A DNA stretch of 37,842 bases, taken from positions 1 to 37,842 of the IMG/VR virus record IMGVR_UViG_3300031857_000558. The stretch is one strand, 5' to 3'. The notes under the pieces are model-generated. The model was not told where the DNA came from and ran no database searches. It worked only from the letters and a program-made list of their open reading frames with translations. Each line of letters opens with the position of its first letter. Position 1 is the first letter of the stretch. Shown here one piece after another: positions 7,204 through 37,842 of this stretch. The position numbers and the translations under genes are program-made. This stretch comes from a virus.

Positions 7204-8377
7204 ACTATCAGAAGGTGGATCTGTTACTGATGCCGCAATTCGGTATCGCCCTTCTAGTCGTGCAAGACGTAAACAATTAGGACGTACTAAAAAACTTCTA
7301 AGAAAGCATCGTTGGGATGCTTCAGACAATCAATTTTTCCTGAACAAAATTATGAAAGACAATGAGATGAGCGAAAAGATTTTCCTTGGTGTATCTGATT
7401 TCGATGATTTAATTACATCTGAAGTTTTACAGCGTCGCATTGATGCTGGTGTAACAACACTCCAACGTGAAACAACTGTGCTTGCCAATCGCAGTACATG
7501 GAAAGAGTGGGCAGAAAAACACTTCAAAGGAATGATGTTCGTTCAATCATCTTCTTCTGATGGTTTCTTAATTGAAGAAGATACAAACAACTTCGTTAAG
7601 TATGATGTAAATAGCAACTCAACTACTGTTCGTGCTTTTGGTGATGAAGACTTTATTGAAAGCATTATTGCAGAAGTTGAATCTAGTTTCTCTATTGTAA
7701 CTTCTTACATTGAGTGGGTTTACGGTAGCGATGGCAACTCTGTTAATGTTCCGCTGAATCGTGAACGTCTTCCTGTTGCAGAAATGTATCCTTTCCTCAA
7801 TGGTGAATCTCTGGAAGACTACTACGATCGTTACATGAATTCAAACGCAAACATTCTTCTACTGATCGGACCTCCAGGAACTGGTAAGACTACTTTCATT
7901 CGTGGATTGCTTGCACATCGTAATGCATCAGCCATTGTTACATACGATGCTGGTATTCTTGAGAAGGATGGTTTCTTTGCTCGCTTTATTGAAGACGATG
8001 CAAGCATTATGGTTCTTGAAGATAGCGATGCATTCTTGAAGTCTCGCAGCGATGGCAATACAATGATGCATCGTTTCTTGAACGTGGGTGATGGTCTTGT
8101 TACCACTAAAGGTAAGAAGATGATTTTCTCTACCAATCTTCCAAGCATTCGTGACATTGACTCTGCATTGGTTCGTCCAGGACGTTGTTTCGATATCGTT
8201 ACCTTTGCACCACTTGAAGTTCCTGAAGCACAAGCATTGGCTGACGCATTAGAAGTAAAACTTCCTGCTCGCCCACGTGGCAAAGAAACTGATAAGTACA
8301 GCATTGCTGAAGTGTTTAATGTTCAATCCGAAAACACTACAAAATCTCAAACAACTAGAAAGGTTGGGTTCATTTGA
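7172..8377 (+). CDS. AAA ATPase (BCS1-like core), role unknown
   Basis: The 401-residue protein has a basic N-terminus (RRKQLGRTKKLLRKHRW), a middle domain of unknown type and a C-terminal AAA core. That core has Walker A GPPGTGKT near residue 232, Walker B-like MVLEDSDAF, sensor 1 FSTNLPS, and RPGRCFDIV, the second-region arginine signature of BCS1-type AAA proteins. Walker B reads LEDSD, not the common LDEID. The ATG at 7172 follows an AGGTG ribosome site, and the in-frame GTG at 7163 lies within that site. The gene is embedded between gp55 and gp47 with overlapping ends, so it is co-expressed with recombination genes. Its substrate cannot be told from sequence. Confidence 0.85.
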   Translation: MSQSVRQLLRELSEGGSVTDAAIRYRPSSRARRKQLGRTKKLLRKHRWDASDNQFFLNKIMKDNEMSEKIFLGVSDFDDLITSEVLQRRIDAGVTTLQRETTVLANRSTWKEWAEKHFKGMMFVQSSSSDGFLIEEDTNNFVKYDVNSNSTTVRAFGDEDFIESIIAEVESSFSIVTSYIEWVYGSDGNSVNVPLNRERLPVAEMYPFLNGESLEDYYDRYMNSNANILLLIGPPGTGKTTFIRGLLAHRNASAIVTYDAGILEKDGFFARFIEDDASIMVLEDSDAFLKSRSDGNTMMHRFLNVGDGLVTTKGKKMIFSTNLPSIRDIDSALVRPGRCFDIVTFAPLEVPEAQALADALEVKLPARPRGKETDKYSIAEVFNVQSENTTKSQTTRKVGFI

Positions 8378-9429
8378 AATTAGCAATTATTACTGACCAA
8401 CACTTTGGTGCAAGAAATGATAGTATTGCCTTTTTAGATTTCTATGAAAAATTTTATGAAAATACTTTCTTTCCTACTATTGATTCTGCTGGCATTACTA
8501 CCGTACTTGTTCTTGGCGACACATTTGATCGACGCAAGTATGTAAACTTCTATGCTCTTCAGCGAGCCAAAGAAATGTTTTTCAGTAAGCTGGCTGAACG
8601 TAACATTAGTGTTCATATGCTGGCTGGCAATCATGATACTTACTTTAAGAATACCAATGATGTAAACTCTCCTGATTTACTTCTGCGTGAATATACAAAC
8701 ATCAACGTAATTGATCACCCAACTACAATTACTGTTGATGATACTGCAATCTGTATGATGCCTTGGATTTGTCCTGAGAACTATCAAGATTCAATTGATA
8801 CTCTCAAAGATACCCAAGCTGAAATCTGTATGGGGCATTTTGAAATTGCTGGGTTCTCAATGTACAGAGGAATGGAAAGTCATGAAGGGTTATCTAAAGA
8901 TCTTTTTAATAAGTTTGATCTCGTTTTCTCTGGGCATTATCACCATCGTTCAGATGACGGACACATCTATTATCTGGGAAACCCCTACGAACTCACATGG
9001 CAAGACTATAATGATCCCCGAGGATTTCACCTGTTTGATTTATCAACCAGAAAACTCGAATTCATCGGAAACCCTTATACTATGTTTGCACGAGTCGAAT
9101 ATGATGACAAAGAAGTTGAACCAGTTGAAATCGACAGCTTGGATCTAAAAGACAAATATGTCAAGTTGATTGTTGTAAATAAAACTGACTATTATAAATT
9201 TGACAAGTTCATTCAGAAGTTGTATAATAAGGGTTGCTCCGACATTAAGATTGTAGAAGATATGTCGGAGTTTCAAGAAGGTGAGATTGGTGAAGAAATC
9301 AATCTTGAAGATACAGTTTCTGTTCTCTCGCATTTTATTGATTCAGTTGAGACTGATGTTGATAAAGAACAAATTAAGACTTTCATGAAGAGTCTTTATA
9401 CTGAGGCAGTTAATATTGAGGTTGTTTAA
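8374..9429 (+). CDS. 47: Recombination endonuclease subunit gp47 (Mre11/SbcD-like)
   Basis: This is the nuclease half of the phage Mre11-Rad50 complex, which resects double-strand ends for recombination-dependent replication. The calcineurin-like phosphoesterase motifs are all visible: TDQHFG (Asp8, His10), GDTFDRR (Asp49), GNHD (85-88), GHFEIAG and GHYHHR. The length of 351 residues matches T4 gp47 (339). The start is a TTG overlapping the stop of the preceding gene as TTGA. No in-frame ATG occurs before the first catalytic motifs, so the TTG is required. It ends in a TAATG overlap with gp46. Confidence 0.96.
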   Translation: MKLAIITDQHFGARNDSIAFLDFYEKFYENTFFPTIDSAGITTVLVLGDTFDRRKYVNFYALQRAKEMFFSKLAERNISVHMLAGNHDTYFKNTNDVNSPDLLLREYTNINVIDHPTTITVDDTAICMMPWICPENYQDSIDTLKDTQAEICMGHFEIAGFSMYRGMESHEGLSKDLFNKFDLVFSGHYHHRSDDGHIYYLGNPYELTWQDYNDPRGFHLFDLSTRKLEFIGNPYTMFARVEYDDKEVEPVEIDSLDLKDKYVKLIVVNKTDYYKFDKFIQKLYNKGCSDIKIVEDMSEFQEGEIGEEINLEDTVSVLSHFIDSVETDVDKEQIKTFMKSLYTEAVNIEVV

Positions 9430-25500: not shown

Positions 25501-26072
25501 TGTTTATCTTTGACATAGAGACACTAGGTGTTGAGTCCAATGCTGTCGTTTTATCGGCAGCATTAATCCATTTTGAGCCATCTGAAAAACCTACCTATCA
25601 GAATCTGCTAGATAATGCTTGCTTTGTTAAATTCAATGCCAAAGATCAGATTGAAAGACTGAAGCGTACAATAGATCTTGGTACATTGGAGTGGTGGAAG
25701 AATCAACATTCTTATACACGAACTGTTTCATTTGATGTGAGTAGTGATGATTTAACTCCTGAAGAAGGAATCACCAGATTGCATAATTACATGAACCAGT
25801 TTAAAAATCCAGCCCATCAAACTATGTGGGCACGAGGTTCTCTAGATCAGATGGCAATTGATTCACTTGCCAAGAAACTTGACATGCATTCTATCACAGA
25901 CTATAATATGTGGAGAGATGTACGAACTGCAGTTGATATGCTTTACGGAACATCCAATGGATATACTGACGTGGTGCATCCTGATTTCAAACGCCATGAA
26001 GTAATTAAACATCACCCAGTGCATGATTGTGCTCTGGATGCGATGCAACTAATGTATGGAAAACAAGTTTAA
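25500..26072 (+). CDS. dexA: 3'-5' exonuclease DexA-like (DEDDh family)
   Basis: The 190-residue product has all acidic residues of a DnaQ-type exonuclease: FDIETLG (Asp5, Glu7), Asp116 in RGSLDQM, and HDCALD (His175, Asp180). It shares with T4 DexA the block LEWWKNQ and the RDVRTAV and HDCALDAM segments. T4 DexA is 227 residues, a single-strand exonuclease active early in infection. Its overlap with the polymerase start suggests joint expression with gp43. Confidence 0.92.
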   Translation: MFIFDIETLGVESNAVVLSAALIHFEPSEKPTYQNLLDNACFVKFNAKDQIERLKRTIDLGTLEWWKNQHSYTRTVSFDVSSDDLTPEEGITRLHNYMNQFKNPAHQTMWARGSLDQMAIDSLAKKLDMHSITDYNMWRDVRTAVDMLYGTSNGYTDVVHPDFKRHEVIKHHPVHDCALDAMQLMYGKQV

Positions 26073-28561
26073 TGCAATTTTACACAAATGTCTTCCCTTA
26101 CGGCAATCGTATGCTTGTCCGTGGGTACGAAAACGGAAAGCCATTCTCACACAAACTTGATTACTATCCAACTCTTTATGTCAACTCCAAGAAAGAAGAT
26201 AGCGAGTGGCGTACATTGGATGGTGCCATTGTTGATGAGATGAAACCTGGACTGATTAAAGACACACGTGAGTTTGTTAAGCGTTACGAAGAAGTGCAGG
26301 GTTTTGACATTTATGGTAATACCAATTATGTGTGTCAATACATCAGTGACAATTATGATTATGATGTTCGCTTTGATATGGAACAGATTAAAGTCTACAC
26401 AATTGACATTGAGACTGCCACTGAGTATGGTTTCCCAGATATCAAAGCTGCCAATGAAGAAGTTCTATTGATCACTGTCAAGGATCTGGCTTCCAAACAA
26501 ATCGTGACATTCGGCTCACGTGCGTTCGTTCACAATCGTGATAATGTAGTATACAAACACTGCAACAACGAACAACATCTTCTTAAAGAGTTCATGATCT
26601 GGTGGCAAGGCAACTACCCTGATATCATTACTGGTTGGAACACTGACTTCTTTGACATGCCATATTTGGTGCGACGCATTCAACGAGAGTTGGGTGATAC
26701 ATTTGCCAACAAGATGAGTCCTTGGGGAGTTATCAATGAGCGCAAGACATTCATTAAAGGCAATGAAGAAATCCACTATGACATTCATGGTATTAGTCAG
26801 CTAGATTATCTACAACTCTACAAGAAGTTTACTTACTCGAAGCAAGAGTCATATCGTCTCGACTACATTGCTGAGCAAGAGTTGGGTGATAAGAAGAAAG
26901 AGAATCCAGGAGAATCTTTCAAAGACTTCTACACGAATCACTGGCAGGAGTTTGTTGAGTATAACATTCAAGACGTTGAACTTGTCGACCGCATGGAAGA
27001 TAAGATGCGTCTTATTGAGTTGTGTTTGACCATGGCGTATAATGCTAAGATCAATTATGAAGATGTATTCTCACAAGTACGTATGTGGGATGCCATCATT
27101 TATAATCACCTGCGTGAGCGTAAGATTGTGATTCCAGCAAAGGGATTCTCTTCTAAGGCAGAGCAGTTTGAAGGTGCGTATGTTAAAGATCCAATCATTG
27201 GTCAGCACAAGTGGCTTGCCTCGTTTGATTTAAACTCTCTGTATCCTCACTTGATCATGCAGTATAACATCAGTCCAGAAACATTGACTTCTGAAAAGAT
27301 TCCATGCAATGTCGAGAAACTTTTGACACAAGAAGTTGATACTAGCTATGCGCATCGTCGTGACTTATCGATGACTGCAAATGGTTGGTGTTATCGTAAA
27401 GATGTCAAAGGATTCATGCCTGAGCTAATGGAAAAGATGTACAAGGATCGTTCCAAGTTTAAGAAACAAATGCTTGCCATTGAACAAGAGTATCAGAATG
27501 ATAAAACTAAAGTCAATTTGCTGAAAGAAATTAGCCGTTTGAATAACCTTCAGATGGCTATGAAGATTGCATTGAACTCTGCCTATGGTGCCATGGGTAA
27601 TCAGTATTTCCGATACTTCGATATCCGTATGGCTGAAGGTATTACAACTTCTGGTCAGTTGTCCATTCGTTGGATGGCTAACAAGTTGAATGTCTTTATG
27701 AACAAGACGCTAAAGACTACTGATGTTGATTATGTTGTTGCCATTGATACTGACTCAATTTATCTTACACTTGAGGTATTGATTGAACGTGTTTGCGTGG
27801 GTAAAACTACCGAACAGAAAATCAAGACTATGGATAAGATTTGCGAGGAAGTTCTGCAGCCATTCATTGATACAGGTTATCAAGAGTTGGCAAAGTACAT
27901 GAATGCTTATTCGCAAAAGATGGTCATGAAGCGAGAAGTTCTAGCCGACAAAGCCATCTGGACTGCCAAGAAGCGATACATTCTTAATGTGCACAACTCA
28001 GAGGGTGTTCAGTTTGCCAAACCTAAGTTGAAGGTTATGGGTCTTGAGATGGTTAAGTCATCGACACCAGCAGTCATTCGTAGCAAGCTGAAAGAATTCA
28101 TCATGGTTATCCTTGAAGGTAGTCAAGAGAATTTACATAAGTTTGTTGGAGAGTTTCGTAAAGAGTTTAATCAATTACCTGTTGAAGAGATTGCATTCCC
28201 ACGTGGTGTTAATGGTATGAACACTTACAAAGGTTCACCAATCTATACTAAGGGTACACCGATTCATGTTCGTGGTTCTCTATTGTTCAACCACCACTGC
28301 AAGCGTTTGGGTCTTGAGAAGAAGTATCAAGCAATCAAAGATGGTGACAAGATCAAGTTCGTGTATGTCAAGAAGCCTAATCCATTCCAAGAAGATGTGA
28401 TTGCATTTCCTCAAGAACTGCCTAAAGAATTCGGCATACATAGTTATGTAGATTACGATTTACAGTTCGAGAAAGTTTTCCTCGATGCGCTTCAAACAGT
28501 TATTGAACCGCTGGGTTGGAAGACTGAAGAACAAAGTTCACTGGAGGATTTCTTTGGATAA
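26072..28561 (+). CDS. 43: DNA polymerase, family B (T4 gp43-like)
   Basis: The replicative polymerase with proofreading. The 829-residue product (T4 gp43 is 898) has exonuclease motifs IDIETATEYG near 111, WNTDFFDMPYL and YNIQDVELV. Its polymerase motifs are DLNSLYPHLI near 387 (motif A), KIALNSAYGAMGNQ near 500 (motif B) and DTDS near 558 (motif C). I start at the ATG overlapping the dexA stop; the longer frame from 26027 begins inside dexA. No intron or split is present, although gene 43 is split in some T4-like phages. Confidence 0.97.
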   Translation: MQFYTNVFPYGNRMLVRGYENGKPFSHKLDYYPTLYVNSKKEDSEWRTLDGAIVDEMKPGLIKDTREFVKRYEEVQGFDIYGNTNYVCQYISDNYDYDVRFDMEQIKVYTIDIETATEYGFPDIKAANEEVLLITVKDLASKQIVTFGSRAFVHNRDNVVYKHCNNEQHLLKEFMIWWQGNYPDIITGWNTDFFDMPYLVRRIQRELGDTFANKMSPWGVINERKTFIKGNEEIHYDIHGISQLDYLQLYKKFTYSKQESYRLDYIAEQELGDKKKENPGESFKDFYTNHWQEFVEYNIQDVELVDRMEDKMRLIELCLTMAYNAKINYEDVFSQVRMWDAIIYNHLRERKIVIPAKGFSSKAEQFEGAYVKDPIIGQHKWLASFDLNSLYPHLIMQYNISPETLTSEKIPCNVEKLLTQEVDTSYAHRRDLSMTANGWCYRKDVKGFMPELMEKMYKDRSKFKKQMLAIEQEYQNDKTKVNLLKEISRLNNLQMAMKIALNSAYGAMGNQYFRYFDIRMAEGITTSGQLSIRWMANKLNVFMNKTLKTTDVDYVVAIDTDSIYLTLEVLIERVCVGKTTEQKIKTMDKICEEVLQPFIDTGYQELAKYMNAYSQKMVMKREVLADKAIWTAKKRYILNVHNSEGVQFAKPKLKVMGLEMVKSSTPAVIRSKLKEFIMVILEGSQENLHKFVGEFRKEFNQLPVEEIAFPRGVNGMNTYKGSPIYTKGTPIHVRGSLLFNHHCKRLGLEKKYQAIKDGDKIKFVYVKKPNPFQEDVIAFPQELPKEFGIHSYVDYDLQFEKVFLDALQTVIEPLGWKTEEQSSLEDFFG

Positions 28562-29153: not shown

Positions 29154-30530
29154 ATGAAAGTTAATAACATTTGTATCTTTGGTGCAGGATCTGCTGGTTG
29201 GATAACTGCACTTTCTATAAAGTCGCATTTACCAGAGGTGAATGTAACTTTACTATCTTCCAATAAAGTTCCTACTATTGGAGTTGGAGAAAGCACACAA
29301 TTAGATCTTGTTGAATTACTCCATGGTGCTGGTATTAATGTTAATGATTTCATTCAACAAACTGATGCTACATTAAAACATGGAATTTATTACAAGAATT
29401 GGAATACCAAAGATTCAGAATATTGGCATGCATTTACAAATTTGACTGAAACTGGATATTATACACGTGCTCATTTGTATCATAAGTTTCATAATATGCA
29501 ACCAGAAGCATATCCTCTGAAAGATTATTATTCAAATGTTCATCCAAGTTATACGCAATGCGTAACTCATAATAGAAGTTCTTCTGACATGCCATTTGCT
29601 TTGCATGTCGATGCTTCTAAAATGGCAGAGTACTTGAGAAACTTCTTGACCCCACATATAACCATTATTGATTTTGACGAGTTTTCAGTTAATAAATCAT
29701 CAAACAAGATAGACTCTATTGATGTTGATGGTAACATCGTAACTGCAGATTTATATGTGGATTGTTCTGGATTCAATAGAGTTCTTGCTTCTCATATTGA
29801 TGGTTTTATTGAGGATAATTATGATTCTAATGTTAACTCTGCTATTTTCGGTAGGGTTAATTATGGTTCAGTTATTAGAAATCCGTATACACTAGCTGAT
29901 GCTCAGGATTGTGGATGGATTTGGAAAGCACCACTACAAAGTAAAGTTGGTAGTGGATATGTGTTCAACGATAATTTCTGTGATGTTGAAACTGCTAAAG
30001 AACACTTCATTAAATATTGGGGTGGTTCAGTAAGAGAAGAAACAGTTCGCTCTGTTAAGTTCTCATCTAGTTCGTTGAAGAATCCTTGGGTTTCTAATGT
30101 GGTATGTAATGGTCTTTCAGCTGGGTTTGTAGAGCCATTAGAAGCCACTGGTATTTCTTGGTTTATACAAGGAGCTAAATCATTATGTAGAATTCTAAAG
30201 AATCGCTACTATGATGAAGATACGCAGATGAAACATAATTCTTTAATGCGTATGTACGTTGAGGATGTGCAAGATTTTGTTGATGTTCATTATTCTCTTT
30301 CACAAAGAAGAGATACTGAATTCTGGAGATACCAGACAAGCAGACCTAGAAGCGATAGGCTTATGGCAAGACTAGAGTTATATTCAAACCAAATGCCAAC
30401 TAAGAGTAACAGAGAAGGTTATAACTGGGCATTTAATGATGTTTCTTGGTTAGATATTCTAACAGGATATGGGTTTAAGATGAATACCAATAATATCCCA
30501 GAAGATATTAAATATACTTTTTATAGATAA
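29154..30530 (+). CDS. Flavin-dependent (tryptophan-type) halogenase
   Basis: The 458-residue product shows the FAD motif GAGSAG (10-15), GVGEST (43-48), FAD-contact DCSGF near 203, the halogenase motif WIWKAP (Trp255, Trp257) and GSGYVF. Compared from memory with PrnA, the catalytic Lys79 aligns with Lys75 (TLKHGI) and Glu346 with Glu330 (VEPLEATGI), so both active-site residues are kept. These enzymes use FADH2, oxygen and halide to halogenate aromatic rings. A cyanophage homologue, VirX1, iodinates many substrates in vitro. It sits between polymerase and uvsX with its own promoter, next to a thioredoxin. The natural substrate is unknown. It is shorter than PrnA or RebH (about 530). Confidence 0.93.
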   Translation: MKVNNICIFGAGSAGWITALSIKSHLPEVNVTLLSSNKVPTIGVGESTQLDLVELLHGAGINVNDFIQQTDATLKHGIYYKNWNTKDSEYWHAFTNLTETGYYTRAHLYHKFHNMQPEAYPLKDYYSNVHPSYTQCVTHNRSSSDMPFALHVDASKMAEYLRNFLTPHITIIDFDEFSVNKSSNKIDSIDVDGNIVTADLYVDCSGFNRVLASHIDGFIEDNYDSNVNSAIFGRVNYGSVIRNPYTLADAQDCGWIWKAPLQSKVGSGYVFNDNFCDVETAKEHFIKYWGGSVREETVRSVKFSSSSLKNPWVSNVVCNGLSAGFVEPLEATGISWFIQGAKSLCRILKNRYYDEDTQMKHNSLMRMYVEDVQDFVDVHYSLSQRRDTEFWRYQTSRPRSDRLMARLELYSNQMPTKSNREGYNWAFNDVSWLDILTGYGFKMNTNNIPEDIKYTFYR

Positions 30531-30536
30531 GGAAAT

Positions 30537-30788
30537 ATGAAACTATTAAAATTTTACGCATCTTGGTGCGGACCATGCAAGGGTTTGTCTATGGTTATCA
30601 ATGGAGCCAAAGATAAAATTAACATTCCTATTGAAGAAATTGACATTGATCAAAACATGGATGCTGTTAAGAAATATAATATCCGTGGTGTGCCAGTATT
30701 GATTTTAGCTGATGATTCTGGAAATGAAATTGATCGCATGACTGGAATGACTGATGAGAAAAAATTACTTGAATTTATTGGAGATTAA
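30537..30788 (+). CDS. Thioredoxin-like protein
   Basis: The 83-residue product has the redox motif WCGPC (Cys11, Cys14) and the cis-proline block GVPVL (Pro53). It is shorter than E. coli thioredoxin (about 108) and close to minimal phage thioredoxins and glutaredoxins. It starts 6 bases after the halogenase stop with an AAGGAAA site. It may serve phage ribonucleotide reductase or the neighbouring redox enzymes. Confidence 0.93.
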   Translation: MKLLKFYASWCGPCKGLSMVINGAKDKINIPIEEIDIDQNMDAVKKYNIRGVPVLILADDSGNEIDRMTGMTDEKKLLEFIGD

Positions 30789-31859: not shown

Positions 31860-32181
31860 TTATGTTGTCGTAGAAAATAAGCATACAGGTTATGACGCAA
31901 TAAAGTTGCTTGATGAACCATTTTCAGGTATAATTATTTCTTACGGCAAGGTTGAGTTTGTAGAAGACGATGCCAATGATACTCTTAGATTAAAATTTGA
32001 GTATGAGATTCATGAGAAGGGTGGTAAAGATTTCACAGATCTAAAACCTTTTGAAAAGTATCTTGGTGATCTTCTTCAGCAACTTATCCATGAAGGTCTT
32101 GAAGAAAATAATTTAACATATACGGGTGGTATTGATAATGAGAATAGAACAGGCGATCTTATCGAACCTGATTCACAGTGA
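31852..32181 (+). CDS. Small conserved protein between uvsX and gene 41
   Basis: The 109-residue product (MFNYVVVENKHTGYDAIKLL...) is predicted alpha/beta with an acidic C-terminus. Phages of this group commonly carry a small gene between uvsX and 41; its function is unknown to me. The ATG at 31852 overlaps the uvsX 3' end by 8 bases. The 3' end overlaps gene 41 by 44 bases. Confidence 0.78.
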   Translation: MFNYVVVENKHTGYDAIKLLDEPFSGIIISYGKVEFVEDDANDTLRLKFEYEIHEKGGKDFTDLKPFEKYLGDLLQQLIHEGLEENNLTYTGGIDNENRTGDLIEPDSQ

Positions 32182-33538
32182 AGAGTATTGCCGCAAGGTA
32201 GTTCCACACTTGAAGAGAGATTACTTTGGTGATCGTAAAGAGGCAGCAATAGTCTCATTGCTGATTAAGTTCTTTGAAGATTATAACAAGCCAGCTTCAC
32301 CTGAGGTCATTCAGATTGAAATTGGTAATCTAAAAGGATTTACTGATAAAGAAATTCCTGAGATGCAGGAACTGGTCAAGTTATTTGACAAAGCAGAACC
32401 AAACCAAGAATGGCTAATCGGTCAAACAGAGAAGTTCTGTAAAGATCGTGCAGTCTATAATGCAATTTTAAATTCAATTAAAATTATTGATGGACGTGAC
32501 AAAACTCTACAACAAGACGCCATTCCTTCTATCCTTTCTGATGCTCTTTCCGTATGTTTTGATAACCATGTTGGTCATGATTACATTGAAGATTCTTCTT
32601 CTCGTTATGATTATTATCACAGAGTTGAAGAGAAAGTTCCATTCGATTTGGACATGTTTAACAAAATCACCAAAGGTGGTTTGTCAAAGAAAACTCTAAA
32701 CATCTGTCTGGCTGGTACTGGTGTTGGTAAGTCTTTGTTTATGTGTCACGTTGCAGCTGGCGCACTGTCTGCTGGTCGCAATGTTCTTTACATTACTATG
32801 GAAATGGCGGAAGAACGTATCGCTGAACGTATCGATGCGAACTTGTTGAATCTTACTATGGATGAATTGAAAGTTGTTGATCGTGACATCTATGAAAGTC
32901 GCATCGATAAGATTGCCAAGAAAACTCAAGGACACTTGATTGTCAAAGAGTATCCAACGGCATCTGCCCATGCAGGTCACTTTCGTGCCTTGCTTGAAGA
33001 GTTGAAACTAAAACGTGAGTTCAAACCTGATATTGTTATGATTGACTATCTAAACATTTGTTCTAGCCAACGAATGAAGCAAGGTGGTTCGATTAACTCT
33101 TATACATATATTAAGGCAATTGCTGAAGAACTCCGTGGTCTTGCAGTTGAATATAATGTTCCCATTGTATCAGCCACGCAAACTACTCGATCTGGATTTA
33201 CAAATTCAGATCCAGGTCTTGAAGATACTTCTGAATCTTTTGGTTTACCAGCCACTGCCGACTTTATGTTTGCGTTGGTTAGTAATGAAGAACTAGAGCA
33301 GTTGAATCAAATTATTGTAAAGCAACTTAAGAATCGCTATAATGATCCAAATTACTACAAGCGTTTTATCATTGGAGTTGATCGAGCAAAGATGAAACTA
33401 TATGACGTAGAGATTTCTGCGCAAGCTGGTTTGTCTGATGCTGGTCATATGAAAGATGATGACAAACCAATGTTTGATAAATCAGACTTTGGCAAACGTA
33501 TACATAGTAGTGAAGGTTTTAGTGGATTTAAGTTCTAA
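32138..33538 (+). CDS. 41: Replicative DNA helicase (T4 gp41, DnaB-like)
   Basis: This is the hexameric 5'-3' helicase of the phage replisome and part of the primosome. The 466-residue product (T4 gp41 is 475) has an N-terminal domain, then a RecA-like core with Walker A GTGVGKS near 195, the DnaB block LYITMEMAEERIAERIDAN, Walker B IVMIDYLNIC, and a glutamine-containing ATQTTRSG. The ATG at 32138 lies downstream of a GGGTGG site; an in-frame GTG at 32126 is less likely. It is followed by AAGGAGA for the next gene. Confidence 0.97.
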   Translation: MRIEQAILSNLIHSEEYCRKVVPHLKRDYFGDRKEAAIVSLLIKFFEDYNKPASPEVIQIEIGNLKGFTDKEIPEMQELVKLFDKAEPNQEWLIGQTEKFCKDRAVYNAILNSIKIIDGRDKTLQQDAIPSILSDALSVCFDNHVGHDYIEDSSSRYDYYHRVEEKVPFDLDMFNKITKGGLSKKTLNICLAGTGVGKSLFMCHVAAGALSAGRNVLYITMEMAEERIAERIDANLLNLTMDELKVVDRDIYESRIDKIAKKTQGHLIVKEYPTASAHAGHFRALLEELKLKREFKPDIVMIDYLNICSSQRMKQGGSINSYTYIKAIAEELRGLAVEYNVPIVSATQTTRSGFTNSDPGLEDTSESFGLPATADFMFALVSNEELEQLNQIIVKQLKNRYNDPNYYKRFIIGVDRAKMKLYDVEISAQAGLSDAGHMKDDDKPMFDKSDFGKRIHSSEGFSGFKF

Positions 33539-33548
33539 GGAGAATAAA

Positions 33549-34850
33549 ATGGTAAAAGTTATTGTAGCAGATAGAAAACATGATTGTCAACACCTGCTTG
33601 GTCAGTTCGTTGATGAGAGTCACTATGACTTGTTGGTTGAAGAAGATTGTGACATTTATATGCCACTTCCTCCAGGTGCAGAGGAAACATATGGCGAAGA
33701 ACGTATCGTTTTTAAATTTCGCAAGAACTACTTCAGTAAAGAACAGCAAGACCAAGCATATGCTGGTTTACGGGAAGCTGCAATTGAAACGCAGAATCGT
33801 GGACTTGCAGCTGGACCACGTGGTGAAAAGCTAGGTAATCGTGAGTGGGTTACCGAGTATGAGTACGACATCGTTGATTACTTCTTGAAGCCATCTGAGA
33901 ATCTTTTTGGTGAAGATCCAATTGAAGAGATTCGCAAGAAGTATGCTGGTAAGAAACCAGAGATCTCTAATCGTGCACGTGTATGGTCTATTGATCGTGT
34001 GAAGAAAGAGAAGTTCAATTTCGAAGAATGGATTGAGCATGCTCGTAAACTATCACAAGATGATGCAAAGAAAGAAGCTGTTCACGTTGCTGAAGATCTA
34101 ATCTGCGCAACTACATACGCCAACTCAGTCAACTCTGGTATTGCTGGATGGTTTGATCGTTACCCACGTATTCCTTATGGTCGTGCGACAGCTTACACTG
34201 CCAAGAATCCAGAGAAGTTTGCCATGGCTTTCCCATTCCTACAGCAACTTGCTCAAGGATTTAAGGATCTTCTTCCATGGCGTTACAACAATCAGATGGA
34301 AGCTGCCAAGAAATTAGATCAATCATTCTTAGTTCCTGGAACTCCATTCACAACAGTGACTGTGAATAAAACATTCCGCACTGCTGCTCACTGTGATGCT
34401 GGTGATTTCACTGAAGGTTTGTCTAACCTGTTGACACTGTCTAATGATGGTAAGTATTCAGGTGGTTATTTGATTGCACCTGAGTATCGTGTTGCAGTTA
34501 ATGTACGTCCAGGAGACTTGCTACTGATTAACAATCACGAAGTTATGCATGGCAATACACCTATCGTTTGCGAAGAAGGATCTGAGCGTATCTCATTGGT
34601 AGTTTACTTCCGTGAGAAAATGCTTGAGTTGGGTAGCAAAGAGTATGAAGACTGTCGTTTTAACTTTGTTGAATCACGCAGACTAAACAAAGAGCATCCA
34701 GAGTGGCGTCATCTTTGGAATGGTGTATCAGCATCTATGTGGACATCTGATGAGTGGTATGAATACTGCGAAAGCAAACTGGGTCGTGAAACCTTATTGA
34801 AGTATCATCCAGAAGCTGAGAAAGCATCTTCACTTGAAGGATTCTTCTGA
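33549..34850 (+). CDS. TET/JBP-like 2OG-Fe(II) dioxygenase
   Basis: The 433-residue product has a C-terminal double-stranded beta-helix core. TTVTVNKTFRTAAHCDAGDF supplies His281 and Asp283, GKYSGGYLIAP is the middle strand, VRPGDLLLI follows, then His334 in EVMHGNTP and Arg347 in ERISLVVYF. The VN-x3-RTA-x-H-x-D-x-GDF pattern is what I know from trypanosome JBP1 and phage TET/JBP relatives, which oxidise thymine or 5-methylcytosine methyl groups in DNA. The N-terminal 250 residues are of unknown fold. The gene ends in a TGATG overlap with a glutamine amidotransferase. A protein hydroxylase of another 2OG subfamily is the main alternative. Confidence 0.82.
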   Translation: MVKVIVADRKHDCQHLLGQFVDESHYDLLVEEDCDIYMPLPPGAEETYGEERIVFKFRKNYFSKEQQDQAYAGLREAAIETQNRGLAAGPRGEKLGNREWVTEYEYDIVDYFLKPSENLFGEDPIEEIRKKYAGKKPEISNRARVWSIDRVKKEKFNFEEWIEHARKLSQDDAKKEAVHVAEDLICATTYANSVNSGIAGWFDRYPRIPYGRATAYTAKNPEKFAMAFPFLQQLAQGFKDLLPWRYNNQMEAAKKLDQSFLVPGTPFTTVTVNKTFRTAAHCDAGDFTEGLSNLLTLSNDGKYSGGYLIAPEYRVAVNVRPGDLLLINNHEVMHGNTPIVCEEGSERISLVVYFREKMLELGSKEYEDCRFNFVESRRLNKEHPEWRHLWNGVSASMWTSDEWYEYCESKLGRETLLKYHPEAEKASSLEGFF

Positions 34851-35545
34851 TGTGTAGCGTAATTGGTGCTGTAATCCAATCACCAACTAAGGATGATTTT
34901 GAAACCCTGCGTAGAGTTTTCCATGAGTCTAAGATTCGTGGTATGCATGCTACTGGGATTTCTATTGTTCTAAACAATAAAATTGTTACATTTAAAGAAT
35001 CAGTTCCTGCAGACAAGTTTAATCATTTGGACAATTTAGAAGAGATGGTCAATGAGGATGGTAATCTTTACCTCATTGGTCATTGCAGATATAGCACCAG
35101 TGACTTGGAATATAATCAACCAATGGCAGATGATACTAAAAGCATTGTTCACAATGGTGTCATCTCTCAAGAGTCTCCAGAGAAATGGAAAGACTTGTAT
35201 GGTTATGACTGCATGACTAAAAACGATAGCGAGTTAGTTCTTCACTCTAAAGATCCATTGAGAGAATATTCTAACATGTCAATGGGTGTATGTGAACTTT
35301 CGCTTGATAAGAAAGTTCGTTTCTATCGTAATGGCAAGCGTCCGATTTATTTTACTTTATTTAATAATGGATGTATAATTACTTCTACTAAAGACATTGC
35401 CAAACGTGCAGGTCTTGATATGCCAGTTGAAGTTCCTATGAATATGTACATGACAGTTGATGGTTACTTATCAATGAACATGGAAAGAGTTGATATTATT
35501 AATAAAGATTTGCAGGGGATAGAATATGAAACAGTACGCATCTGA
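34850..35545 (+). CDS. Class-II (Ntn) glutamine amidotransferase
   Basis: The 231-residue product begins MCSVIGA, so Cys2 becomes the N-terminal nucleophile after Met removal. It carries the family's GHCRYSTS and VHNGVIS strands and a later NDSELVL block. These domains release ammonia from glutamine for a partner synthetase. There is no synthetase domain fused here, but the next gene is an amidoligase, the natural acceptor. Translation is coupled to both neighbours (TGATG at the start and a 20-base overlap at the end). Confidence 0.93.
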   Translation: MCSVIGAVIQSPTKDDFETLRRVFHESKIRGMHATGISIVLNNKIVTFKESVPADKFNHLDNLEEMVNEDGNLYLIGHCRYSTSDLEYNQPMADDTKSIVHNGVISQESPEKWKDLYGYDCMTKNDSELVLHSKDPLREYSNMSMGVCELSLDKKVRFYRNGKRPIYFTLFNNGCIITSTKDIAKRAGLDMPVEVPMNMYMTVDGYLSMNMERVDIINKDLQGIEYETVRI

Positions 35546-36404
35546 TAAGTTTACATGGGGTTATGAGATTGAATGGGGTGATGTAGATCGTCGTTTGACT
35601 CCACCTGAACATCTTGGTAAATGGGAATTTGCTGAAACTGATATTGTAAACATTCATGAACCATTCAAGTATGTTGCTTGCGATCCCATGGGTACTGAAC
35701 CTTATATGGGTGGAGAGATTAACACCAAGCCGACTGCTACTTGGAAAGAGCAAGTAGATCGTGTGATGGAACTACATCAGTTCTTTGTTGATAATGGCAA
35801 TCAACCTTCTGCTTCTTGCGTCAATCATGGTCACCTTCATGTGTTTGTTCCAGGACTTAAAGATGATGTAGCTTCGTTAAAGAAGTTGGTTGCTTATATC
35901 AAAGCCAATCAAGCAGACACCATTGAGTCATGTTATGGTTTCTACGAGACTGGACAGATGAAAGGTTCCAAGGGTGCTAAGATGTATCTCAAGTATGATG
36001 GTGGTCGTGAGATGCCAGAATACATGTGTGACAATATCATCAATCTAGCAACAGACTTTGAACACTTTATCAAGTTGCATGCTGCTGGTAAAGATGGTGT
36101 ATCAATGGGTCGTCCATTCCGCTACGCAATCAATACTTACTGTATGAAACACACAGGTACAATCGAGTTCCGCTGTTTCCGTTCATCAACTAAACGTGAC
36201 GAGATTGAAGCGCAGTTTCGTTTTGCAGAGAAGTTTATTGATGCTGCGCTAAACGATGGACCAAGTGTTAAAGAAATTCTTGCTGCAGATACCTACAAGT
36301 TCCCACCATTCGTTTGGGATCTTAATGAGTACATTGGATGGATCAATACAAAGTGGGATAAAGAGCGTGGCAACAAACAACGTGAATACCTTGCAGTTGC
36401 GTAA
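35526..36404 (+). CDS. Amidoligase (COOH-NH2 ligase, glutamine-synthetase fold)
   Basis: The 292-residue product matches the amidoligase enzyme family (PF12224 type): FTWGYEIEWGD with Glu14 and Glu16 for metal binding, GGEINTKP, the NHGHLHVFVPG strand (family form GLHVHV) and EFRCF. The reaction is ATP-dependent amide formation between a carboxylate and ammonia or an amine. It has an AGGGGA ribosome site. Its pairing with a glutamine amidotransferase and an acetyltransferase matches gene neighbourhoods that comparative genomics has predicted to build unusual peptides or conjugates. The substrate is unknown. Confidence 0.9.
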   Translation: MKQYASDKFTWGYEIEWGDVDRRLTPPEHLGKWEFAETDIVNIHEPFKYVACDPMGTEPYMGGEINTKPTATWKEQVDRVMELHQFFVDNGNQPSASCVNHGHLHVFVPGLKDDVASLKKLVAYIKANQADTIESCYGFYETGQMKGSKGAKMYLKYDGGREMPEYMCDNIINLATDFEHFIKLHAAGKDGVSMGRPFRYAINTYCMKHTGTIEFRCFRSSTKRDEIEAQFRFAEKFIDAALNDGPSVKEILAADTYKFPPFVWDLNEYIGWINTKWDKERGNKQREYLAVA

Positions 36405-36936
36405 ATGTTCCAGAGATGAATTTGTCGCAGCAATCACTGACGACAAAGCCGATGGTTTTGCCAAGACATTCAAAGCCAAAGCAGATATGCAAGAGCAGTG
36501 GGATGAATGTTATGGCGCATTTAATGACGATGGCGAATTGATGGGTGCAATTATTACTACTCTTGGAAAAACTAATCCAAGAGTGGCAAACCTACAACTT
36601 CTTCATACGTTCAACAAGCATCGTCGTAAAGGTGTTGCCAAAGAATTAACCTTAACTTCGTTTCAACTAGTCAGACTTGCTGGTGCAGTTTACTTTAGAG
36701 TTTCTGCAGAACCAGAAGCTGTTGCATTTTATGAAAGCATTGGGTTCAAGTTCTGGGGTAAACAAAAGAGTGGGTGTAGCCTGAGTATGTTTAAAGTTGC
36801 AGGCGATACTATTCCAGAAGGTATTTACGATGATAAAGATCCAGTCTTACATAAAGCACTTTATAGTGGTCGGAAGGGAAGCCTAGCCTTGTCCTACATC
36901 GTGCAAGAAAGTGTTGACTTAAATTCATTTCTGTAG
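36382..36936 (+). CDS. GNAT-family N-acetyltransferase
   Basis: The 184-residue product (from GTG) has the acetyl-CoA loop RRKGVAKEL in motif A, preceded by the strand RVANLQLLHTF, and the motif B region AVAFYESIGFKFWG typical of GNAT enzymes. The frame has no ATG near its start. I prefer the GTG at 36382, which lies 20 bases before the amidoligase stop; TTG codons at 36391 and 36397 are alternatives. The strong amidotransferase-amidoligase-GNAT linkage suggests it acylates the same product. Confidence 0.88.
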   Translation: MNTLQLRKCSRDEFVAAITDDKADGFAKTFKAKADMQEQWDECYGAFNDDGELMGAIITTLGKTNPRVANLQLLHTFNKHRRKGVAKELTLTSFQLVRLAGAVYFRVSAEPEAVAFYESIGFKFWGKQKSGCSLSMFKVAGDTIPEGIYDDKDPVLHKALYSGRKGSLALSYIVQESVDLNSFL

Positions 36937-36942: not shown

Positions 36943-36971
36943 AGTATTATCGAAACTTGATCTTTTATATT

Positions 36972-37550
36972 ATGGCTTCCAATCATACCAAGGCATCTGC
37001 TATCACTGAACGTATTGCAGCTGAATACTTTTGGGAACAAGGTTATAAAACCAAATACTCTGGAATGAGTAAAAAAGTTTTTCTTCAAATGACTGAAGAT
37101 GGAGATTTATCTTTATCAAATGTTTTGGAAAATTTTATCACTCATATCAATCCAAAGAAAAAAAGATCCAACGAAACTGGCATGGATTTTACTGACAAGA
37201 GTGATGCTAAGTATATGTCAACTCGGATCAAAGTTGTCAAAACTAATCACACTAAAAAAGACGGCACAGTCTCGCATTATCAAACTAGAATGCTAAATTG
37301 CTGTCTGTCGGGTAAGTCACTACGCAATAAAGTTGGAACACTGCGAATAGCAATCACTGTTTATAATCCAGAAGATGACAAATGTAGCAGAGTTTTACTC
37401 GTACGTATTCCTTACCCTCAGTGGAATGATCTTACAGATAAAGGTGGTAATTTGAACTTCGAGTTCAATCTTGATGGCACTATGAAAGATAATCATTTTA
37501 AAAAATATGGTAGCTATGTATGTGATGATGTCACAGAATTTTGTAAATAA
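36972..37550 (+). CDS. Unknown protein, possibly nuclease-like
   Basis: The 192-residue product is basic. A helical N-terminus (AITERIAAEYFWEQGYKTKY) leads to the segment GMDFTDKSDAKYMSTRIKVV, where D-x5-D-A-K resembles the PD-(D/E)xK nuclease site, although the spacing is tight and I am not sure. The second half is beta-rich with TLRIAITVYN and RVLLVRIPYP. The ATG at 36972 is 30 bases after the -10, with a poor ribosome site. It overlaps the next gene by one base (TAATG), so it belongs functionally with that modification-type gene. Confidence 0.75.
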   Translation: MASNHTKASAITERIAAEYFWEQGYKTKYSGMSKKVFLQMTEDGDLSLSNVLENFITHINPKKKRSNETGMDFTDKSDAKYMSTRIKVVKTNHTKKDGTVSHYQTRMLNCCLSGKSLRNKVGTLRIAITVYNPEDDKCSRVLLVRIPYPQWNDLTDKGGNLNFEFNLDGTMKDNHFKKYGSYVCDDVTEFCK

Positions 37551-37842
37551 TGGATTATAGATCAAACGAAAATAGACGTGAAGCGTTCATTCGCTGGTAC
37601 GCATGGTCAATGAAATATGATGACTGTGATCCAGCGGTATGGGCTACGAACTATCTAAACAAACGATATGAACACAATGATGAACAGCGTTTATGGTTAG
37701 CTTGGCTTTACGGCAGCACCTACTACCTTCCAACTTCTTGGGTTCTCATGAATGAATTCCCAGACTTTGAGTTGGCAACAGTAGATCGTATTACCCAATG
37801 GAACACTGCCAACTACAAACGACTTCGTTATCAAACTGATAC
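37550..37842 (+). CDS. Start of a protein like alpha-glutamyl/putrescinyl-thymine pyrophosphorylase (amino acid:DNA transferase); 3' truncated
   Basis: The window ends inside this frame after 97 residues. The visible part reads RREAFIRWYAWSMKYDDCDP, then ANDEQ-type NDEQRLWLAWLYGSTYYLPT, then MNEFPDFELATVDRITQWN and YKRLRYQTD. This pattern recalls the phage family predicted as aGPT-Pplase or amino acid:DNA transferase, which in hypermodified phages attaches amino acids or polyamines to pyrophosphorylated 5-hydroxymethyl-pyrimidines in DNA. The match is from memory. The start overlaps the previous stop (TAATG). Confidence 0.75.
   Translation, partial: MDYRSNENRREAFIRWYAWSMKYDDCDPAVWATNYLNKRYEHNDEQRLWLAWLYGSTYYLPTSWVLMNEFPDFELATVDRITQWNTANYKRLRYQTD

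What the first reader, a model, noticed from the sequence alone, without database searches (positions are those of the whole stretch)
37550..37842. Truncated aGPT-Pplase/amino acid:DNA transferase-like gene at the window edge
The segments NDEQRLWLAWLYGSTYYLPT, NEFPDFE and YKRLRYQTD resemble the family tied to alpha-putrescinyl or amino-acid thymine modifications. Its position beside the oxygenase operon is the strongest clue that the locus modifies DNA.
Basis: partly seen in the sequence, partly recalled or inferred. Interest (0 to 1): 0.75.

Follow-up and report, generated by a model that had tools for sequence, protein, structure and literature searches.

The report
Phage thymine-decorating enzyme, cut at edge
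The cut-off gene at the end of this bacterial-virus fragment is the start of an enzyme that attaches an amino acid to thymine in viral DNA; its neighbours suggest an unusual route in which an oxygenase first activates thymine inside finished DNA, and several of these DNA-decorating enzymes end in the same short tail as the virus's own DNA polymerase, as if all ride the replication machinery.

Summary
An ATG-started frame at 37550 runs off the 37,842-base contig. Full-length relatives (97% identical over the visible 97 residues, 339 aa) match Pfam PF18724 ADDT, 'Amino acid:DNA transferase', at E=2e-22. Their AlphaFold model matches the solved 5-phosphomethyl-dU glycinyltransferase PUGT (Z 18.7).

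The surroundings are more interesting. In about 80 relatives the order is helicase, TET/JBP oxygenase, glutamine amidotransferase, acetyltransferase, ADDT, P-loop kinase. No dUMP hydroxymethylase was found in 27 contigs (four of 160-171 kb) and no cytosine-C5 methyltransferase in the 17 tested; ThyX is present. Other ADDT phages have either a hydroxymethylase-like TS or TET/JBP, never both (Cr30's TS scores as true ThyA), with at least three switches on the ADDT tree. Best model: TET/JBP hydroxylates thymine in DNA, the kinase phosphorylates it, ADDT installs an amino acid.

TET, ADDT and the acetyltransferase also share the DNA polymerase's C-terminal clamp-type tail (86/86 ADDTs, 73/73 TETs; 0/72 kinases). 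Unrelated Vibrio phages show the same principle with a different tail.

The family is known. The TET-fed variant is untested biochemically as far as I know, and the shared tail appears new.

The parts
37550..37842 (+). 5' part (97 codons) of an amino acid:DNA transferase gene (PF18724 ADDT); about 242 further codons are expected beyond the contig end
   Evidence: 97% identical to L003:6001-7020 (339 aa) over all 97 residues; L003 protein = PF18724 E 2.3e-22; fold = PUGT 8z2m Z 18.7
33549..34850 (+). TET/JBP-type 2OG-Fe(II) oxygenase (longest ORF starts at 33456; start at 33549 chosen by alignment with relatives); C-terminus SSLEGFF
   Evidence: PF12851 2.4e-26; Fe ligands HxD...H and the 2OG Arg invariant in ten TETs; tail
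34850..35545 (+). class II glutamine amidotransferase domain protein, starting M-C as catalytic Cys2
   Evidence: PF13522 1.8e-8; Met-Cys N-terminus in most relatives; conserved between TET and ADDT
35526..36404 (+). amidoligase-like protein (weak), present in a subset of relatives
   Evidence: PF12224 E 0.0056, below the curated cut-off; synteny
36256..36936 (+). GNAT acetyltransferase (true start probably near 36361); C-terminus VDLNSFL. Other relatives carry a different GNAT-like protein with tail PSLEEFL in the same place
   Evidence: PF13673 1.4e-10; alternative GNAT PF00583 5e-4; tail
36957..37550 (+). unknown protein in a variable slot just before ADDT (present in 3 close relatives; replaced elsewhere by GIY/ParB-like, LMW phosphatase and other genes, or missing)
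26027..28561 (+). family B DNA polymerase (T4 gp43-like), C-terminus SSLEDFFG: reference for the shared tail
   Evidence: PHROG 262 E 0; 55% identical to cyanomyophage polymerases; tail
32126..33538 (+). gp41-like replicative helicase, constant upstream neighbour of the TET gene (not tailed)
   Evidence: phrog_19 4e-126; synteny

Best explanation
The gene encodes an amino acid:DNA transferase (ADDT) that works in a thymine-hypermodification operon of a T4-like (cyanomyophage-related) phage. Proposed route: (1) the phage makes normal dTMP with ThyX and replicates with T; (2) the TET/JBP oxygenase hydroxylates the 5-methyl of thymine in the DNA to 5-hydroxymethyluracil, instead of supplying hmdUTP to the polymerase; (3) the P-loop kinase just downstream phosphorylates the hydroxymethyl to 5-phosphomethyl-dU; (4) ADDT displaces the phosphate with the nitrogen of an amino acid (glycine in the solved homologue; the amino acid here is unknown); (5) the glutamine amidotransferase, the amidoligase-like protein and the GNAT finish the adduct by amidation and/or acylation. 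TET, ADDT and GNAT are probably recruited to the replication fork by the T4-type sliding-clamp-binding peptide at their C-termini, the same peptide that ends the DNA polymerase, so that T is modified soon after synthesis. Shown by sequence or model: family identities, gene order, lack of hydroxymethylase and of C5-methyltransferase in the contigs searched, TET/hydroxymethylase exchange, fold, shared tails. Inferred: chemistry, substrate base, order of steps, clamp binding.
For: ADDT identity. Fold: pLDDT 93 model, best match 5-PmdU glycinyltransferase PUGT Z 18.7 over 257 residues, next DNA glycosylases Z about 9. Motif ETxLCx[FW]K found in 121 of 132 relatives, also in M6 gp51. Operon order in 80 loci. 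TET/JBP in 15/17 and Ploopntkinase3 in 15/17 records. No TS/hydroxymethylase in 27 contigs, including four of 160-171 kb; no C5-MTase in 17; ThyX in 10/17. Exchange of entry enzyme: ADDT phages with hydroxymethylase-like TS (Vi01, M6, phiW-14, D506, 1.255.O, TSW001, VPALA) lack TET/JBP, while Cr30 (TS scoring 373 bits, as a true ThyA) and BrownCNA have TET/JBP; in 16 sampled ADDT neighbourhoods a kinase plus exactly one of TET or TS is present; at least 3 switches on the ADDT tree. Tail: ADDT 86/86, TET 73/73, GNAT-alt 57/59, polymerase 28/31 end L[ENDQ]xF; kinase 0/72, amidotransferase 0/76, helicase 0/60, unassigned ORFs 2/413. T4 gp43 and gp55 tails as control; those tails are interchangeable clamp-binding epitopes (PMC2988020).
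Against: No chemistry was measured. Active-site residues do not tell T from 5mC; from memory, the Asp three residues after the Fe-ligand Asp lies where NgTET1 has a residue contacting the cytosine amino group, so cytosine is not excluded. The only phage TETs with reported activity, as cited in PMC12730594, act on cytosine. The kinase, which must act on DNA in this model, lacks the tail. Only the first 97 residues of this copy are visible, without the ETxLCxFK motif or its own tail; downstream kinase and tail are read from relatives. The kinase family is not the one named hmdU DNA kinase in Vi01, D506 or VPALA (PF18747). ThyX and kinase cannot be seen in the window itself. The long contigs are not proven complete.
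Confidence: 0.72

Rival explanations
1. Cytosine route: the TET enzyme oxidises 5mC to 5hmC, which is then decorated by the kinase, ADDT or other enzymes, as in reported phage TET/C5-methyltransferase/glycosyltransferase pathways.
For: Phage TETs reported so far act with C5-methyltransferases on cytosine (summarised in PMC12730594). The conserved Asp after the Fe ligand is compatible with reading a cytosine amino group (residue role from memory). A TET-associated-glycosyltransferase-like gene (below cut-off) lies beside ADDT in Cr30.
Against: No PF00145 C5-methyltransferase in 17 clade records, nor in 13 named phages including Cr30, so no phage source of 5mC was found. The solved ADDT homologue is named for action on phosphomethyl-dU. 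TET swaps with dU-hydroxymethylase-like TS on the same ADDT tree.
Confidence: 0.15
2. The operon is a composite: ADDT, TET and kinase modify DNA, while the amidotransferase/amidoligase/GNAT genes serve another product (peptide or surface polymer) and merely lie between them.
For: Amidotransferase genes of this kind occur in many other phages, e.g. Pseudomonas phages. Amidoligase-like and GNAT genes are exchanged among relatives.
Against: The amidotransferase is kept between TET and ADDT in nearly all relatives, and a GNAT-like gene is nearly always in the same place. The GNATs carry the same tail as TET, ADDT and polymerase, which ties them to DNA.
Confidence: 0.2
3. The shared C-terminal tail is not a clamp-binding peptide but a chance or compositional feature, or a tag for something else (e.g. 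protease or compartment targeting).
For: A few other proteins end similarly (G001 7960-8691, 129553-130290). In TSW001 and VPALA the modification enzymes share a tail with each other but not with the polymerase. T4 alpha-GT binds the clamp without this tail.
Against: 86/86, 73/73 and 57/59 against almost none in other neighbour families. In 9 genomes the best hypermodification enzyme ranks 1st or 2nd among all ORFs against the polymerase tail in 6 (combined P about 8e-6, not corrected for relatedness). The T4 counterpart of the tail is an established clamp epitope (PMC2988020).
Confidence: 0.25

Closest known systems
5-phosphomethyl-dU glycinyltransferase PUGT (gp46, Pseudomonas phage PaMx11; PDB 8z2m/8z2n) and M6 gp51 (close match to PDB 25qc)
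   Same: Fold over 257 residues (Z 18.7), E-x3-C-x2-K motif, Pfam PF18724 for M6
   Different: Only about 12% identical; M6's hydroxymethyl comes from a TS-type enzyme, with a threonine-dehydratase-like PLP enzyme beside ADDT that the window clade lacks; different C-terminus
Salmonella phage Vi01/ViI gp247 and other Ackermannviridae ADDTs
   Same: PF18724 at 5e-60; 26-29% identity to the window clade for this group; a DNA kinase gene close by
   Different: hmdU expected at nucleotide level from a TS-type enzyme; kinase is HMUD2 (PF18747), not Ploopntkinase3; no TET/JBP
Caulobacter phage Cr30 (TET/JBP + ADDT + kinase, ThyA)
   Same: TET 49% and kinase 41% identical, ADDT of the same family; its only TS is a strong ThyA-type match
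   Different: No amidotransferase match in the phage search and a TET-associated-glycosyltransferase-like gene (below cut-off) beside ADDT; ADDT C-terminus unlike its polymerase
Mycobacterium phage BrownCNA (Coopervirus) gp2-gp3 and metagenomic relatives L173-L184
   Same: TET/JBP (gp2) next to ADDT (gp3) and a kinase, no TS
   Different: TET only 23% identical to the window's and below the Pfam cut-off; no amidotransferase match found
Kinetoplastid JBP1/2 (base J pathway)
   Same: Concept: hydroxylation of thymine in DNA, then decoration of the hydroxymethyl (PMC12730594)
   Different: Base J adds glucose; here a kinase and an amino acid transferase are present; closeness of the oxygenases not tested beyond PF12851

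Membership tests
ADDT / amino acid:DNA transferase (PF18724) | Profile match above curated cut-off | tested here: met
   79-85 bits vs 26.2 for three full-length relatives; the 97-aa window piece alone gives no match
ADDT / amino acid:DNA transferase (PF18724) | Same fold as a solved glycinyltransferase acting on 5-PmdU | tested here: met
   PUGT 8z2m Z 18.7, rmsd 3.7, 257 residues
ADDT / amino acid:DNA transferase (PF18724) | Conserved E-x3-C-x2-K motif | tested here: met
   ETxLCx[FW]K in 121 of 132 relatives, also in M6 gp51; not visible in this truncated copy
ADDT / amino acid:DNA transferase (PF18724) | Transfers an amino acid to phosphomethyl-dU in DNA | not testable with these tools
   needs enzyme assay
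Classical hmdU hypermodification pathway (ViI/M6/phiW-14 type) | Phage TS-family dUMP hydroxymethylase supplies hmdUTP | tested here: not met
   0 of 27 clade contigs, four of them 160-171 kb
Classical hmdU hypermodification pathway (ViI/M6/phiW-14 type) | Hydroxymethyl-specific DNA kinase | tested here: inconclusive
   A P-loop kinase (PF18751) lies downstream in 15/17 records but is not the HMUD2 family; activity unknown
Classical hmdU hypermodification pathway (ViI/M6/phiW-14 type) | PALP-type PLP tailoring enzyme as in M6 and ViI | tested here: not met
   PF00291 only in M6 and Vi01, none in 12 clade contigs
TET/JBP oxygenases | PF12851 above cut-off and HxD...H...R site | tested here: met
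   92 bits vs 34.9; residues invariant
TET/JBP oxygenases | Substrate T (JBP-like) or 5mC (TET-like) | not testable with these tools
   context favours T
T4-type sliding-clamp clients | C-terminal hydrophobic/acidic peptide like gp43/gp55/gp33 | tested here: met
   TET, ADDT, GNAT and polymerase tails, T4 control; shown on relatives for ADDT
T4-type sliding-clamp clients | Physical binding to the clamp | not testable with these tools
   needs a pull-down or complex structure

The most novel reading that the evidence does not exclude
Phage DNA-hypermodification enzymes are a class of replisome clients. In each phage lineage the base-tailoring enzymes (TET/JBP, ADDT, hmdU kinases, glycosyl- or acetyltransferases) carry the C-terminal peptide of that phage's own DNA polymerase (SLEDFF in the window clade, KTRKLW in Vibrio phages D506 and 1.255.O, DLSSLF in Cr30, a related L-rich tail in Vi01). 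They would thus be tethered to the sliding clamp and modify DNA as it is made. In the window clade this allows thymine hypermodification to start from ordinary T by in-DNA hydroxylation, without any modified nucleotide pool.
Probability: 0.55. Interest if true: 0.8.

Novelty: new variant of a known kind. Interest (0 to 1): 0.62.

Why it matters
If right, thymine hypermodification has two interchangeable entries: modified-nucleotide synthesis and oxidation of T already in DNA. It would give one of the few prokaryotic counterparts of the base J route, testable in a culturable, harmless phage (Caulobacter phage Cr30). The shared polymerase-type tail gives a simple sequence signature for finding unknown DNA-modifying enzymes in phage genomes, and a direct test of how modification keeps pace with replication.

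Tried and rejected
Pfam on the 97-aa piece alone: no match. phmmer and profile searches of the window-clade ADDT against PDB sequences: no relative; only fold comparison and the M6 sequence reached the solved enzymes. hhalign of the clade profile against a single M6 sequence: weak (prob 4%), so the M6 link rests on the shared Pfam family, fold and motif. A scan with the 1.255.O ADDT found nothing in viral contigs. Kinase against PDB: no useful hit. Considered and dropped: a broken or pseudogene reading of the truncation (contig edge); alpha-putrescinyl chemistry (no supporting gene seen); clamp binding by T4 alpha-GT through the same tail (it lacks it). TSW001 and VPALA do not fit the polymerase-tail rule, and DLP6 polymerase was not found, so it could not be tested. 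The key papers (Lee 2018, Lee 2022, Iyer 2013, Burke 2021) are not held or were seen only as citations; from memory Iyer 2013 predicted TET/JBP-generated hydroxymethylpyrimidines as starting points for further modification, so the concept of a TET-fed route is not claimed as new.

Full report
What is there. At the right edge of the window an ORF starts with ATG at 37550 and is open at 37840; its start overlaps the stop of the preceding ORF (TAATG), as in a translationally coupled operon. The source record is 37,842 bases long, so the gene is cut by the contig end. The 97 visible residues match 286 stretches in viral contigs, the best at 97% identity, 92 named phage records and PHROG 3271 (4e-17). 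One named hit, Glutamicibacter phage Montesquieu, is annotated alpha-glutamyl/putrescinyl thymine pyrophosphorylase clade 2.

Family. The full-length protein in L003 (339 aa) and two others match PF18724 ADDT, amino acid:DNA transferase, at 6e-22 to 7e-24, and no other family. By tblastn, 376 phage records match the full length, those listed at 25-29% identity, mostly Vi01-like phages, plus mycobacteriophages and Vibrio phages. A 28-sequence alignment gave an all-helical AlphaFold model with mean pLDDT 93. Its best structural match among solved structures is the 5-phosphomethyl-dU glycinyltransferase PUGT of phage PaMx11 (Z 18.7, 257 residues, 12% identity), followed at Z about 9 by AGOG-type DNA glycosylases. 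The motif ETxLCx[FW]K, invariant at E, C and K in the alignments, is also in M6 gp51, whose near-identical protein has a solved structure.

Neighbourhood. In the window the gene follows a TET/JBP oxygenase (PF12851 2e-26), a class II glutamine amidotransferase, an amidoligase-like protein, a GNAT and one unknown protein. In 80 relatives the order helicase, TET/JBP, amidotransferase, GNAT (of two kinds), a variable slot, ADDT, usually a small protein, P-loop kinase is kept as far as each contig reaches. The kinase matches PF18751 Ploopntkinase3. The same kinase type sits near ADDT in Montesquieu. The polymerase is 55% identical to those of cyanomyophages, so this is a T4-like phage.

Where does the hydroxyl come from? 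In characterised thymine hypermodification, 5hmdU is made as a nucleotide, incorporated, phosphorylated by a 5hmdU DNA kinase and then decorated (PMC6449724). No PF00303 protein was found in 27 contigs of this clade, including contigs of 168, 171, 165 and 162 kb, whereas ThyX is present in 10 of 17. No C5-methyltransferase was found in 17. Among other ADDT phages, Vi01, M6, phiW-14, D506, 1.255.O, TSW001 and VPALA have a divergent TS-like protein and no TET/JBP; Cr30 and BrownCNA have TET/JBP, and the only TS in these two, in Cr30, scores 373 bits, as a true ThyA would. None of these has a C5-methyltransferase. In 16 ADDT loci fetched from viral contigs, each has a kinase and exactly one of TET/JBP (13) or TS-type enzyme (3) nearby; Montesquieu adds a fourth TS case. 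On the ADDT tree the entry enzyme changes at least three times. These facts are best explained if TET/JBP and dUMP hydroxymethylase are alternative ways to make the same hydroxymethyl-U, i.e. if this TET hydroxylates thymine in DNA. That is inference: the active site is intact (HxD...H...R invariant) but does not by itself reveal the substrate base.

Later steps. A PALP-type PLP enzyme, present in M6 and Vi01, is absent from 12 clade contigs, so the adduct is probably finished differently, perhaps by amidation and acylation through the amidotransferase and GNAT. This is the least certain part.

The shared tail. The DNA polymerase of the window ends in SSLEDFFG, the TET in SSLEGFF, the GNAT in VDLNSFL, and ADDTs of relatives in GLE[MN]F(T/I). 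Over distinct proteins of 138 loci plus the window, a terminal L[ENDQ]xF(0-2) occurs in 86/86 ADDTs, 73/73 TETs, 57/59 alternative GNATs, 11/22 GNATs (most of the rest have close variants) and 28/31 polymerases, against 0/72 kinases, 0/76 amidotransferases, 0/60 helicases, 0/50 UvsX and 2/413 unassigned ORFs. In T4 the corresponding C-termini of gp43 and gp55 (SLDFLFG, SLDFLYE) are interchangeable sliding-clamp-binding epitopes (PMC2988020), and T4 alpha-glucosyltransferase binds the clamp (PMC13216743), although that paper finds clamp binding not to be the main determinant of glucosylation.

The tail rule extends beyond this clade. In Vibrio phage D506, 5 of 210 ORFs end in [KR]LW (0.03 expected): the DNA polymerase, ADDT, both hmdU-kinase-family proteins (PF18747, PF18723) and a 99-aa protein; 1.255.O shows the same four enzymes. 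In Cr30 the polymerase (DLSSLFD) is matched best by the TET-associated-glycosyltransferase-like protein (DLSKLF), and in C48C1 the TET ranks second. Vi01 shows a weaker match. TSW001 and VPALA are exceptions: their enzymes share KLW-type tails with each other but not with the polymerase. Over nine genomes the combined rank test gives about 8e-6, not corrected for relatedness. The rule was noticed during the work and then tested, so the first examples are not independent of the hypothesis.

Verdict. The gene is an ordinary member of a known family by itself. Its setting is a new variant: a TET-fed thymine hypermodification operon whose DNA-acting enzymes appear to be replisome-tagged. The main uncertainties are the substrate base, the amino acid added, the final product and actual clamp binding.

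Noticed in passing
L106, L107, L099, L108, L187, L097 (Vibrio D506, 1.255.O, VPALA, Aeromonas TSW001, Vi01, Cr30): Hypermodification enzymes end in the tail of their own DNA polymerase (D506, 1.255.O, Cr30, weakly Vi01) or share a tail among themselves (VPALA, TSW001).
   Followed up: yes
Vi01 30355-30567, D506 55591-55890, TSW001 108444-108665 and 26939-27592: Hypothetical proteins (70, 99, 73 and 217 aa) end in a polymerase-like tail; candidates for gp33-like or other clamp clients.
   Followed up: partly
window 29154-30530: A tryptophan-halogenase-like flavoprotein (PF04820 1.5e-90) next to an Asp-hydroxylase/cupin-like gene, rarely found at this place in relatives.
   Followed up: no
L047:7020-8450, L069:7020-8146: A radical SAM protein (PF04055 7e-13 in L047) inserted between ADDT and the kinase in a few relatives; may add a further tailoring step.
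   Followed up: partly
L013:4073-4684, L021:3319-3924: Extra small 2OG-Fe(II) oxygenases (PF13759, PF13640) inserted between TET and ADDT in some relatives.
   Followed up: partly
Cr30 59353-60681, DLP6 27179-28525, BrownCNA 785-1759: TET/JBP enzymes are misannotated as 'SNF2 DNA repair protein' and 'queuine tRNA-ribosyltransferase' in public phage records.
   Followed up: yes
G001 129553-130290 and 7960-8691; G002 31985-32944: Proteins outside the operon, of unassigned function, end in polymerase-like tails (PLDFFLG, GLESFF); the first type is conserved between both genomes.
   Followed up: no
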